Shown: in pieces, positions 40,730 to 47,963 of the stretch
Layout: every line of letters starts with the position of its first letter
How positions within the stretch are numbered: the first letter of the stretch is position 1
Assembly (NCBI GenBank): GCA_011365025.1
Contig: RDOF01000023.1
Location: 1 to 50,660, forward strand
DNA length: 50,660 bases
Source of the DNA: Candidatus Thorarchaeota archaeon
GTDB lineage: Archaea; Asgardarchaeota; Thorarchaeia; Thorarchaeales; Thorarchaeaceae
Direction: 5' to 3'
Notes under the pieces: model-generated
Database searches by the model: none
Told to the model about the DNA's origin: nothing
What the model saw: the letters and a program-made list of their open reading frames with translations, nothing else
Position numbers and translations under genes: made by a program

Positions 40730-41386
40730 ATGAATCGGATGAATGAAAGGTTTGATACAAAGGAATTAGCTGCTCTTCTCGTGGACTTGTCGAAGAAGGA
40801 CGAGTTCTCTGGCGTAGTATTGATTGCCAAGGACCATCAAGAAGTATTCAAGGAGGCGTATGGCTACGCTTCAATAAGATACAATATTCCGAATCGAACA
40901 GACACTCGTTTCAATCTTGGTTCCATTAACAAGATATTCACTCGTACTGCTATCCAACAGCTTGCCGAGAAGGGCAAGCTGCATCCAGATGACCATGTTG
41001 GACGTTTCCTCCCTGATTTTCCAGAGGCGATAGCTGCCAAGGTGACCATCAATCACCTGCTTACGTTTACATCGGGGTTGGGACACTACTGGAATGATCG
41101 TTTCATCATGTCAATGGCAAATCTCCGTAGTATTGACGATTTCATCGCGCTCTTCATTGACGACCCCCTCTCATTTGAGCCAGGTACACAGGAGCAATAC
41201 AGCAACTCCGGATACGTCGTATTGGGCATGACTATGATTGCTGGTGGCGCGCCCGGTGTGTCTGCATTTCTAATCAATTACATTGACCAAGGATACACTG
41301 CCATTATCCTTTCGAATTACGACCCAGAAGACGCTCAGGTTGTGGAGAGGAGAATCACAGACTATATGAAATCGATTCGCGGCTAG
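40730..41386 (+). CDS. Shortened serine hydrolase of the beta-lactamase family
   Basis: 218 residues, about half the usual domain length. The N-terminal part is normal: GSINK gives Ser65 and Lys68, HLLTFTSG follows, and YSN is at 157-159. Right after GYVVLGMTMI the sequence jumps to AGGAPGVSAFL, which corresponds to the GHGGGAPGxxA strand normally about 100-150 residues later. It then runs to a normal end (GYTAIILSNYDPEDAQ). The frame is intact, so either a precise in-frame deletion or a functional miniature. The third-motif His is replaced (AGG). No signal peptide. Confidence 0.75.
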   Translation: MNRMNERFDTKELAALLVDLSKKDEFSGVVLIAKDHQEVFKEAYGYASIRYNIPNRTDTRFNLGSINKIFTRTAIQQLAEKGKLHPDDHVGRFLPDFPEAIAAKVTINHLLTFTSGLGHYWNDRFIMSMANLRSIDDFIALFIDDPLSFEPGTQEQYSNSGYVVLGMTMIAGGAPGVSAFLINYIDQGYTAIILSNYDPEDAQVVERRITDYMKSIRG

Positions 41387-42578: not shown

Positions 42579-43331
42579 TCATGGATGCATGAGTTCGGCC
42601 AAGTAAACTGTCCCAAATAGGAGGAGAATGGCCAAAATGATTGTAATGGCAACATTCGTAATCATCCTTTTTGTCTTCAGAAATGGGAAGATGAAGCCGG
42701 TTTCACCTCTATACTCATTATACTGCTCGCCGAACTTGCTGAATAGATGACTCTCTTCCATACTTGCCAACAGGATGTAGGCAATGAGAGTACCAAACCA
42801 GATAAGGAATGTCCACTCGGGGCCGAGCCAACCTAGGTCTCCCAAGGTTTCTCTGAAGCTTCTGCTCGTCAGGTTGGCGGTGAAGACAATAACTCCCAGG
42901 TACTGAGGGTGTCGTACAAAGCGATATGGACCTGATGTGACAAGCCCCTCAGGCTTTCTGAATCGCAGATAAAGGACTGAGTAGAGCAGAATAAACAAGC
43001 CTATGCAGGATACAACTATCTCAGGGATACGGTTTCCTCCAAAGAGAAATGTGTTAATCGCCTCCAAGAAATAGAGATTGCCCCTCTCAGTCACCAGCGG
43101 TGCATCAATAGATCCCAATGAGAAGAACATGACAAGCAGATAGAGCAGAAATGGCAGTGTCATGAGACCTCCCCAGATGAACAAAGCGGGGACAGATTGG
43201 AAGAAGACCATCAGCCAGCCAGCTGTGTCAAAGAACCTTTCTCTCAGTGGTTTATTTCCTTCTGGATTCTTGGATGAAACAACATGTTCTTCATCCTTCT
43301 TTTCTTGATCGTTTCCAACAAGCATAATCAA
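42579..43331 (-). CDS. ICMT/PEMT-like membrane methyltransferase homologue (paralogue 3)
   Basis: 250 residues with an acidic/basic cytosolic N-terminus of about 35 residues, then five helices. SGPYRFVRHPQYLG carries His141-Pro142, and MEESHLFSKFGEQYNEYRGETGF forms the second conserved segment. It is clearly the closest relative in the window of the 16999-17721 protein, sharing W-x-G/S-P, WFGT, AYILLA and NLTSR/TLTTR stretches. The pair are probably lineage paralogues. The substrate is unknown. Confidence 0.85.
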   Translation of the reverse strand: MIMLVGNDQEKKDEEHVVSSKNPEGNKPLRERFFDTAGWLMVFFQSVPALFIWGGLMTLPFLLYLLVMFFSLGSIDAPLVTERGNLYFLEAINTFLFGGNRIPEIVVSCIGLFILLYSVLYLRFRKPEGLVTSGPYRFVRHPQYLGVIVFTANLTSRSFRETLGDLGWLGPEWTFLIWFGTLIAYILLASMEESHLFSKFGEQYNEYRGETGFIFPFLKTKRMITNVAITIILAILLLFGTVYLAELMHP

Positions 43332-45918: not shown

Positions 45919-47118
45919 ATGGCGAATGCAACTACCCAGAGTCTATCAGAGAATCATGTGGGCTCGTTTGCAAAGAACGAGATTGGCCCACTGATGAACT
46001 ACCTGCTTCTTCCTTTGATGATGAGCCTGCTATTCCTTCAAGCAATCAGGGAGTTCATTGGACAGATTTACTTCCAGAATCTTGGTGCGATGTCCCTAGG
46101 ACCCTCTGTCCTTCTGGTATTTCTCCTGCTCTCTCCAATTGTCGTGGTTATCCTTCGAAAGCTGCGATCAGAATCTCTTTTGATGATTAGTGGGGTTGGT
46201 GTAGTCCTGTTTCGTTTCATCATGCCTTTTGTTCAATCAAGCTCGGCATTCTACATGCTATCTGCTGGCTTAGTAGTTGCATTCTTTGGTATATACCTCC
46301 CAGTTGCCCTCTCAATTCGATTTGAAGGCATGCCAGATTCGCTCCCCTCCGGTTCTGCTTTATTCAGCATAGGCCTCTGCTTTGCTATTGCCGTAGATCT
46401 AATGTGGAGGACTGTTGGTGCAACATGGGACCTATCTACCGGCCCCTTTGGGCTCTTTATTGGTCCTTTGCTTTGTATCATAACTGCGCTTTTCCTATAC
46501 AGGGGCTATACTGCAAGGAACCCACTCTCATCAGAGCTGCCCGCCTCTCGAACGACGTCCAAAGCCAAGGCGGCTTTTTACGGGCTTGGGTTCGGAGGTG
46601 TGATGTTTGCAGTCCTCACCTTTCTAGCATATCCCAACGTTGTCGCCCGATGGACCGTCAGCTCCTATGAGATTGCTGCTATTTCTATCGCCCTGGGTCT
46701 AATTGCATACGCCATATTATCGGTTCATGAAACTGGAGAACATCTACTGATGCGCCGGGAGTTCATTCTGATCATCAACCTCCTGGCGATTGTAGCGGGT
46801 GTTGACCTGGCCTATTTGTTGTCGCCCGTGGCAGGTTTCTTAGCTGGTGCAAGCATCTTTGCATTCGTGCTTGACCTAAGATTGCTCTGGGGCTATCTCG
46901 AAAAAAGCAACGCCAATCTTACCGACTATGTAGTCTTTCACTTCACCGGAATGCTAGTCCTGTTATTCTTTACACTATTCTATGTACTTACTCTGATTGC
47001 AGGCATGCTGCTTCCTGCACTTGAAGGATTAGCCCCCTACCTGATTCTCATCTCGTTTGCGCTTGCTGTGGTACCGTCGCTGATCGTGGGATTCAGCAGG
47101 AAGGAGGTGCTGGTGTGA
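45919..47118 (+). CDS. Polytopic membrane protein, PGAP2IP/CWH43 N-terminal-like
   Basis: 399 residues with about 11-12 helices and few charges. A segment around residues 225-250, GLGFGGVMFAVLTFLAYPNVVARWTVS in its span (here paraphrased: GxGFGGVMF then VVARWTVS at 241-248), matches the order of GAAFGS...VSRWAVSG that I recall from human CWH43. The gene overlaps the next by 4 nt (GTGA), exactly as if the eukaryotic fused protein had been split. Function by analogy: membrane platform for lipid-anchor remodelling, unproven in archaea. GGTGATGG precedes ATG 45919. Confidence 0.75.
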   Translation: MANATTQSLSENHVGSFAKNEIGPLMNYLLLPLMMSLLFLQAIREFIGQIYFQNLGAMSLGPSVLLVFLLLSPIVVVILRKLRSESLLMISGVGVVLFRFIMPFVQSSSAFYMLSAGLVVAFFGIYLPVALSIRFEGMPDSLPSGSALFSIGLCFAIAVDLMWRTVGATWDLSTGPFGLFIGPLLCIITALFLYRGYTARNPLSSELPASRTTSKAKAAFYGLGFGGVMFAVLTFLAYPNVVARWTVSSYEIAAISIALGLIAYAILSVHETGEHLLMRREFILIINLLAIVAGVDLAYLLSPVAGFLAGASIFAFVLDLRLLWGYLEKSNANLTDYVVFHFTGMLVLLFFTLFYVLTLIAGMLLPALEGLAPYLILISFALAVVPSLIVGFSRKEVLV

Positions 47119-47963
47119 AAAGCGCAGCTCTCTTCAGAATTGCTGCTGTCCTCTCAGTCATCCTCTTGATTGGGACTGCATCAGGCCTGGTCTTGTCACT
47201 AACTCCCGCACCTAATACGGCACCAAGCGACACACTGACAGTCATGACCTACAACATCTACCAGGGGTACACACCTGATGGACAGGTGAATCTTGAGCGA
47301 ATACGAGATACAATACGTGATTCAGGAGCTGACCTTGTGGGTCTTCAGGAGTCGGACTCCGGGCGTGTTGGTTCGATGAACATGGACTCGGTTCTCTGGC
47401 TCTCCACTCAGCTTGGAATGCACAGCTATTTTGGGCCACCTACAAGCGAGCAAATCATTGGTGTTGCACTTCTCTCAAAGTACCCAATAGCGAGTGCTAG
47501 CTATCACATGCTAAGCTCCGAGGAACTTCCCAGAGTCCTGCTCGAAACCGTGGTTCGTATTGGCTCCCTAGATCTGAATGTCTTTGTCGTACATCTCGGA
47601 CTTTCATATGTTGACCGAACAACGCAGGCTGATGAGGTTACGGCAATAATGAATGGGGTTTCTGGATCTAAGATTCTGATGGGTGACTTCAATACACTTC
47701 CCACAGGGGCGCCTGAACTGGGTGTTGAGAGTCCAGACGATACCATATACCAGGATATCTCAACGTATCTCAATGACACCTGGACCGCCGCTGGTAACCC
47801 CCTTAACCCTGTGAATGGGTACACCTGGCCAAGCACCGAACCCTACGAGCGAATTGACTACATATGGGTAAGTTCAGACATTTCCGTCCTGTCATGTGCT
47901 GTCGTTTCTAGTGCCACCGGAAGCGACCATTTGCCTGTTGTCGCAGGCATTCAACTTCCGTAG
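47115..47963 (+). CDS. Exported EEP-family phosphodiesterase, CWH43 C-terminal-like
   Basis: 282 residues from GTG 47115 with an N-terminal signal anchor (about 5-30). The DNase I-like (EEP) active site is complete: Asn47 in MTYNIYQG, Glu79 in LQESD, His160 in VVHLG, Asp191 and Asn193 in GDFN, Asp248 in RIDYIW, Asp271-His272 in GSDHLP. Stretches GADLVGLQESD, MDSVLWLSTQLGM, YFGPP and LSKYPIASASYHMLSS follow the CWH43 C-terminal (PGAP2IP_C) domain closely. The domain would act outside the membrane, on lipid phosphodiesters or phosphoinositol-like heads by inference. Translationally coupled to the membrane protein. Confidence 0.9.
   Translation: MKSAALFRIAAVLSVILLIGTASGLVLSLTPAPNTAPSDTLTVMTYNIYQGYTPDGQVNLERIRDTIRDSGADLVGLQESDSGRVGSMNMDSVLWLSTQLGMHSYFGPPTSEQIIGVALLSKYPIASASYHMLSSEELPRVLLETVVRIGSLDLNVFVVHLGLSYVDRTTQADEVTAIMNGVSGSKILMGDFNTLPTGAPELGVESPDDTIYQDISTYLNDTWTAAGNPLNPVNGYTWPSTEPYERIDYIWVSSDISVLSCAVVSSATGSDHLPVVAGIQLP

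What the first reader, a model, noticed from the sequence alone, without database searches (positions are those of the whole stretch)
45919..47963. Split CWH43: a two-gene archaeal counterpart of the eukaryotic GPI lipid-remodelling protein
Directly seen: a polytopic membrane gene whose stop overlaps by 4 nt (GTGA) a gene for an exported EEP enzyme. Residues 241-248 of the membrane protein (VVARWTVS) and the preceding GFGG segment resemble the CWH43 N-terminal PGAP2IP region as I remember it. The EEP protein follows the CWH43 C-terminal domain over several blocks (GADxxxxxESD, WLxxxLG, YFGPP, LSxYPI, HLLS-like). Unlike human CWH43 as I recall it, where GDFN is lost, the archaeal enzyme keeps the full catalytic set (N47, E79, H160, D191, N193, D248, D271, H272). 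Established: CWH43 exchanges or remodels lipid moieties of GPI proteins. Inference: an archaeal lipid-anchor or inositol-lipid remodelling system, possibly ancestral to it.
Basis: partly seen in the sequence, partly recalled or inferred. Interest (0 to 1): 0.85.

Follow-up and report, generated by a model that had tools for sequence, protein, structure and literature searches.

The report
Archaeal two-gene relative of CWH43
Two overlapping genes in an Asgard archaeon encode, as separate proteins, the transporter-like membrane part and the enzyme part of a relative of CWH43, a eukaryotic protein that swaps the lipid on membrane-anchored proteins; this makes the origin of that process in our archaeal relatives open to test.

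The parts
45919..47118 (+). Gene A: 399-aa polytopic membrane protein, PGAP2IP-type membrane subunit with a predicted MFS fold
45937..46512 (+). First six-helix half of A (residues 7-198), equivalent to the first MFS half / PGAP2IP first TM domain; no direct Pfam PF23022 match in the window protein
   Evidence: homology to fused proteins
46561..47097 (+). Second six-helix half of A (residues 215-393); residues 216-358 match PF23021 6TM_2nd_PGAP2IP (23.7 bits, E 4.9e-5, cut-off 27)
47103..47109 (+). GGAGGTG, ribosome-binding-like stretch 5 nt before the start of gene B
   Evidence: read directly
47115..47118 (+). GTGA: start codon of B overlapping stop codon of A (4 nt)
47115..47963 (+). Gene B: 282-aa EEP phosphodiesterase of the PGAP2IP type with an N-terminal hydrophobic anchor; outside location inferred
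47139..47195 (+). N-terminal hydrophobic segment of B (residues 9-27), in the place of helix 13 of the fused proteins
47220..47960 (+). EEP catalytic domain (residues 36-282) with N47, E79, H160, D191, N193, D248, D271, H272

Best explanation
The two genes encode the two halves of an archaeal homologue of the CWH43 C-terminal region (PGAP2IP), made as a translationally coupled pair. Protein A is a 12-helix membrane subunit with the MFS fold. Protein B is a two-metal EEP phosphodiesterase held on the outer face by one N-terminal helix, which matches helix 13 of the one-gene version. Most likely mechanism: A binds, and perhaps flips, a phospho(glyco)lipid of the archaeal membrane and presents its headgroup-phosphate bond to B. 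B then cleaves that bond or exchanges the lipid, as CWH43 is proposed to do with diacylglycerol and ceramide on yeast GPI proteins. Shown here: homology, split layout, catalytic residues, predicted folds, conserved pairing. Inferred: complex formation, outside location, lipid substrate, exchange chemistry.
Against: A itself stays below Pfam's cut-off for PF23021 and has no PF23022 match; in the wider set of split partners 11 of 27 match PF23021 at E 0.1 or better and 16 do not. Four fused proteins of the commoner type show no PF23021 or PF23022 match at E 0.1, so they join only through profile comparison. No eukaryotic CWH43 sequence could be compared directly. GPI markers are nearly absent by Pfam models: Gaa1 1 of 227 over cut-off, GWT1 0 of 227. 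The six genomes over the PF23021 cut-off (G033, G034, G035, G037, G056, G057) show no peptidase C13 match and none is in the Frag1 list. Archaea are not known to make ceramide anchors (recalled). The nearest biochemically tested EEP relatives remove phosphocholine/phosphoethanolamine from GlcNAc, not lipid. Ten neighbouring window ORFs gave no lipid gene over cut-off; one methyltransferase-like ORF is just below.
Confidence: 0.6

Rival explanations
1. The pair is a scavenging system: B cleaves outside phosphodiesters (nucleic acid, nucleotides or similar) and A, an MFS transporter, imports the product. No lipid is involved.
For: A has an ordinary MFS fold and one of 27 family members touches MFS_1 at E 0.0013. 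B's fold class includes many nucleases (fused homologue: TDP2, LINE-1 endonuclease and ExoIII rows). PF03372 scores B as high as PF23226 does (78.4 against 78.8 bits). The EEP chains among solved structures that B touches at E 1 or better bear only general family names (best E 0.0044).
Against: B falls far below the ExoIII models (25.7 against a cut-off of 99 bits), while PF23226 rings in only 1 of 14 control genomes. B keeps a hydrophobic anchor, and in 31 of 31 long frames fetched the membrane and EEP parts are one polypeptide. Mammalian PGAP2IP is in the ER and Cwh43 acts on GPI lipids.
Confidence: 0.17
2. B removes zwitterionic or other phosphodiester-linked groups from surface or lipid-linked glycans, like bacterial GlcNAc-PDase; A moves the glycolipid substrate or the product.
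For: Fossa 2023 places Asgard EEPs in the same cluster as GlcNAc-PDase and Cwh43/PGAP2IP, and its tested members hydrolyse GlcNAc-6-PC/PE (sections read).
Against: [quoted passage not shown] the Asgard/Chloroflexota subgroup was not tested and differs in size and domains.
Confidence: 0.13
3. B is a polyprenyl- or dolichyl-(pyro)phosphate phosphatase that recycles the glycan carrier on the outer face (VanJ-like), and A returns the carrier across the membrane.
For: A weak match of B's residues 207-279 to the VanJ model (28.7 bits). VanJ as a membrane-bound outside EEP enzyme is recalled.
Against: 28.7 bits is far below the VanJ cut-off of 700, and the match covers only the C-terminal quarter of B.
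Confidence: 0.07

Closest known systems
Eukaryotic PGAP2IP / CWH43 C-terminal region (Pfam PF23022 + PF23021 + PF23226)
   Same: Same order of parts: two six-helix halves, described as an MFS pair in human PGAP2IP, then an EEP domain. PF23226 match over cut-off, PF23021 match below it.
   Different: Two polypeptides instead of one; archaeal; substrate unknown. Yeast CWH43 also carries an N-terminal PGAP2-like part, of which the window proteins show no Pfam match.
Fused Asgard membrane-EEP proteins (e.g. L006 in G056)
   Same: Homologous over both membrane halves and the EEP; same catalytic residues.
   Different: One gene; the link runs through the helix at 400-423 of the P0133 model, where the window has a gene boundary.
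GlcNAc-PDase and the Asgard/Chloroflexota EEP cluster of Fossa 2023 (PMC10704324)
   Same: Same EEP cluster as Cwh43p and PGAP2IP; metal-site residues of the same kind.
   Different: Tested enzymes are of the Clostridia group, mostly single-domain; the sections read (5, 8, 10, 19) describe no split partner gene.
MFS lipid transporters (Spns2; LplT as recalled)
   Different: No transport shown; sequence similarity to MFS_1 is marginal (1 of 27 members).

Membership tests
PGAP2IP / CWH43 C-terminal region | C-terminal EEP domain of the PGAP2IP type (PF23226) | tested here: met
   78.8 bits against cut-off 27, though the general EEP model scores 78.4; PF23226 rings in 1 of 14 control genomes
PGAP2IP / CWH43 C-terminal region | Second six-TM domain (PF23021) | tested here: inconclusive
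   Window 23.7 bits, E 4.9e-5, cut-off 27; 10 of 12 close members match at E 1 or better, 11 of 27 in the wider set at 0.1; fused relatives L006-L010 pass
PGAP2IP / CWH43 C-terminal region | First six-TM domain (PF23022) | tested here: inconclusive
   No direct Pfam match for the window; passes in 5 of 8 fused Asgard proteins, with which A aligns through both halves (profile columns 39-388)
PGAP2IP / CWH43 C-terminal region | Membrane region is an MFS pair, as stated for human PGAP2IP | tested here: met
PGAP2IP / CWH43 C-terminal region | Membrane and EEP parts on one polypeptide | tested here: not met
   Two ORFs with a 4-nt overlap; hence called a split homologue, not filed as a plain member
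PGAP2IP / CWH43 C-terminal region | Function in lipid remodelling of GPI proteins | not testable with these tools
   No assay; GPI markers nearly absent by Pfam models
EEP phosphodiesterase superfamily | Two-metal catalytic residues (N, E, H, D, N, D, D, H) | tested here: met
   All eight present; conserved across the 144 rows, one row at 271/272 apart
Major facilitator superfamily | MFS fold | tested here: met
   (predicted model)
Major facilitator superfamily | Match to an MFS sequence family | tested here: inconclusive
   MFS_1 in 1 of 27 members at E 0.0013; none in the window protein
GlcNAc-PDase (Clostridia group) | Secreted single EEP domain without membrane segments or partner | tested here: not met
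   B has an N-terminal hydrophobic segment in the place of helix 13, although cleavage as a signal peptide is not excluded, and it is paired with A
GlcNAc-PDase (Clostridia group) | Hydrolysis of GlcNAc-6-PC/PE | not testable with these tools
   needs an enzyme assay

The most novel reading that the evidence does not exclude
Asgard archaea run a lipid-anchor or inositol-lipid exchange reaction on the outer membrane face with an MFS-fold presenter and a separate EEP exchanger, and the eukaryotic CWH43/PGAP2IP machine of the ER descends from this archaeal system. The window's two-gene module would then be a living split form of a eukaryotic GPI-remodelling enzyme, from before or beside its use on GPI.
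Probability: 0.22. Interest if true: 0.88.

Novelty: new variant of a known kind. Interest (0 to 1): 0.62.

Why it matters
The role of the EEP domain of Cwh43/PGAP2IP is described as still vague, and whether mammalian PGAP2IP has any role in GPI biogenesis is described as yet to be determined. A natural two-protein version, with a tethered enzyme of 282 residues separate from its membrane partner, makes both parts easier to express and assay apart. The spread of fused and split forms through Asgard genomes also makes the archaeal origin of a step in eukaryotic lipid-anchor remodelling testable, beside the recent claim that GPI-anchor synthesis is Asgard-derived.

Tried and rejected
Considered and rejected: (1) B as a generic ExoIII-type nuclease: 25.7 bits against a cut-off of 99. 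(2) B as VanJ: 28.7 against 700. (3) The split as an accident of one genome: 31 of 31 short-frame EEP places with upstream DNA held have a polytopic gene upstream. (4) A link to a full GPI pathway: Gaa1 5 of 227 genomes at E 1e-3, 1 over cut-off; GWT1 3 of 227, 0 over cut-off; peptidase C13 in 23 of 56 genomes of G056's class (19 over cut-off), but in none of the six genomes over the PF23021 cut-off. (5) Co-occurrence of the EEP with Frag1/PGAP2-family genes: 62 both, 54 EEP only, 36 Frag1 only, 75 neither, odds ratio 2.4, p 0.002; not corrected for kinship or genome completeness, so not used as support. (6) Inositol-1-phosphate synthase is in 210 of 227 genomes, so it does not discriminate.

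Led nowhere: by sequence A meets no MFS chain among solved structures (one match, E 1.3, a tRNA deaminase; one match, E 0.0075, a complex I chain). The third protein search, with fused Asgard proteins, found 12 proteins and none with a eukaryotic name, so no eukaryotic CWH43 sequence entered any alignment or tree. The viral contig scan found nothing. The 50 rows shown for the fused model concern its EEP part, so an MFS fold of the fused membrane half rests on homology. Fused proteins of unnamed origin outside the Asgard set (P0135-P0137, P0139-P0144) align with A's family only weakly (E 1.4e-4 and 0.0024), and some subgroup pairs not at all (Kari-type with the PGAP2IP-like fused group 0.13). 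That script planned six controls; two were not found in the files and four ran, as single sequences, which makes them weaker profiles than the families. Papers: 8 searches; no title or abstract listed concerns a split archaeal CWH43, which is an absence in this open-access library only (one search listed 40 of 195 papers).

Full report
WHAT IS THERE. Gene A (45919-47118, 399 aa) and gene B (47115-47963, 282 aa) lie on the + strand and overlap by GTGA. A GGAGGTG stretch 5 nt before B's GTG start fits translational coupling. A has 12 hydrophobic segments by a simple hydropathy scan; B has one at residues 9-27 before its catalytic domain, and the scan also marks 141-159 inside the EEP domain. The nearest named relatives are Thorarchaeota contigs: L001, where A is 77% identical, and L002, 42%. 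No whole genome is held for the window.

PFAM EVIDENCE. B matches PF23226, the PGAP2IP nuclease-like domain, at 78.8 bits (cut-off 27), level with the general EEP model at 78.4. A matches PF23021, the second PGAP2IP membrane domain, over residues 216-358 at 23.7 bits, E 4.9e-5, below the cut-off of 27. In A's family of 12 (11 relatives and itself), 10 match PF23021 at E 1 or better, best 3.8e-6. In a wider set of 27 split partners, 11 match at E 0.1 or better and 16 do not. This is weak for A alone, so I looked for intermediates.

THE LINK THROUGH FUSED PROTEINS. P0036, of unnamed origin, is one protein with PF23021 (48.1 bits) and PF23226 (71.9 bits), both over cut-off. A scan of 227 Asgard genomes for PF23021 rang in 12 and passed the cut-off in 6. 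All six lie in one class of 58 genomes. That class holds a 53% match to a protein named Kariarchaeaceae; I searched only that class with it, so this names the class only tentatively. Of 8 fused frames from that scan, 8 pass PF23226, 5 pass PF23021 and 5 pass PF23022; L006 scores 111, 107 and 43 bits. These 8 were picked by PF23021. Of 4 fused frames found through PF23226 instead, 4 pass PF23226 and none shows PF23021 or PF23022 at E 0.1. Profile comparison joins A's family to the membrane half of the 8 over 322 columns at E 7.1e-16. A repeat by subgroup gave A's family E 2.9e-25 to other split partners, 2.3e-21 to the commoner fused group, 4.6e-8 to the group with the strong Pfam matches, and 4.8e-4 to the three Kari-type partners; the two fused groups join at 2.1e-19. 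Four unrelated polytopic proteins gave 0.042 or worse against all groups. Some pairs do not join directly (Kari-type with the strong-Pfam fused group 0.13).

DISTRIBUTION. PF23226 rang in 116 of 227 Asgard genomes, 113 over cut-off, and in 1 of 14 control genomes. Of the 150 places listed there (more were not listed), 106 lie in open frames of 550 aa or more, 9 in 400-549 and 35 under 400. I held 31 different long frames, and 31 of 31 have 7-13 hydrophobic segments before the EEP domain; for the other long frames, fusion is inferred from length. I examined the context of all 35 short ones. Four (L063, L076, L080, L083) run into a contig end. The other 31 all have a gene with at least 5 hydrophobic segments, or the 352-aa membrane-protein-like ORF of L081, directly upstream on the same strand (L081 by its internal ATG). 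In 21 of the 31 the overlap is the same 4 nt as in the window; in the others the distance is -49 to +6 with the first possible start codon. Upstream frames in L048, L051, L056 and L061 are short (152-310 aa); at least L048 is cut by its contig end. Homology of the upstream gene with A was tested by profile for 15 of them and by tblastn for L001-L003. The split layout is thus common and conserved, beside a commoner long-frame layout. Some genomes hold two fused genes side by side (L084, L085).

TREE. A quick tree of 144 EEP domains puts 30 fused rows, 28 from Asgard genomes and P0133 and P0134 of unnamed origin, on one branch (SH-aLRT 94). The window sits in a starred group of 7 split rows, two pairs of them identical. 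Most other split rows (L047-L062 bar L052 and L053, L064, L065, L014) lie in a 50-row branch (100). L046, L052 and L053 fall with the Kari protein P0086; L016 stands apart. Fused and split need 3 changes on it, with stand-alone hits of unknown gene context left out. L063 and P0031 were labelled split although their upstream DNA was not seen, and P0138 fused although its partner is another enzyme domain. The root is a midpoint, several branches are long and no eukaryotic row is present, so which layout came first is open.

MECHANISM. Shown: homology, layout, catalytic residues and predicted folds. Inferred: B faces outside, A and B form a complex, and A presents or flips a phospholipid whose phosphodiester B cuts or exchanges. 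The model is yeast Cwh43, by which diacylglycerol or phosphatidic acid on GPI proteins can be exchanged for ceramide or ceramide-phosphate, and which also uses lyso-GPI anchors (passages read, PMC4962981). A review says the role of mammalian PGAP2IP in GPI biogenesis is yet to be determined (passages read, PMC7125958). Against a GPI-specific role in these archaea: Gaa1 and GWT1 are nearly absent by Pfam models, and the six genomes over the PF23021 cut-off lack detected C13 peptidase and Frag1. A 2026 Nature paper nevertheless calls GPI-anchor synthesis unambiguously Asgard-derived, by other methods (passages read, PMC12872458).

KNOWN AND NEW. Known: EEP domains of Asgard and Chloroflexota proteins cluster with Cwh43p and PGAP2IP, and that group differs in size and domain organisation from the clostridial one (PMC10704324, section read); PGAP2IP is MFS plus EEP. 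The protein database already marks all three PGAP2IP domains on P0133. Not found in the searches: the two-gene form, its conserved 4-nt coupling across Asgard genomes, or a description of full three-domain PGAP2IP homologues in Asgard archaea. I rate it a new variant of a known kind.

Noticed in passing
window 42579-43331 (-): A 250-aa membrane protein weakly like isoprenylcysteine carboxyl methyltransferase / phospholipid methyltransferase families (23.9 and 21.2 bits, cut-offs 24 and 25), near the CWH43-like pair.
   Followed up: no
227 Asgard genomes; L070-L073: Frag1 (PF10277; the family of PGAP2, as recalled) rings in 98 of 227 Asgard genomes, 47 over cut-off, and in 0 of 14 control genomes. 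The N-terminal part of yeast CWH43 corresponds to PGAP2.
   Followed up: partly
P0138 (810 aa): A protein of unnamed origin that fuses a type I phosphodiesterase domain (PF01663, a broad family that holds the GPI ethanolamine-phosphate transferases, as recalled) to a PGAP2IP-like EEP domain (32.3 bits, cut-off 27).
   Followed up: no
L084 (G053) and L085 (G054): Two fused membrane-EEP genes stand side by side on the same strand, about 1 kb apart, in two genomes; G052 has two EEP places at a similar distance.
   Followed up: partly
G046:C11:581290-581868 (near L012): A fused-type gene whose EEP frame carries one in-frame TAA; broken gene or assembly error, left as it is.
   Followed up: no
P0044, P0053, P0069 and 22 more rows: A well-supported EEP group (SH-aLRT 100) holding proteins named Odin-, Hod- and Hermodarchaeal, seen only as stand-alone proteins; whether they have a membrane partner gene was not tested.
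   Followed up: no
window 40730-41386 (+): A 218-aa beta-lactamase-family ORF matching profile positions 6-154 of 329; it looks short for the family.
   Followed up: no
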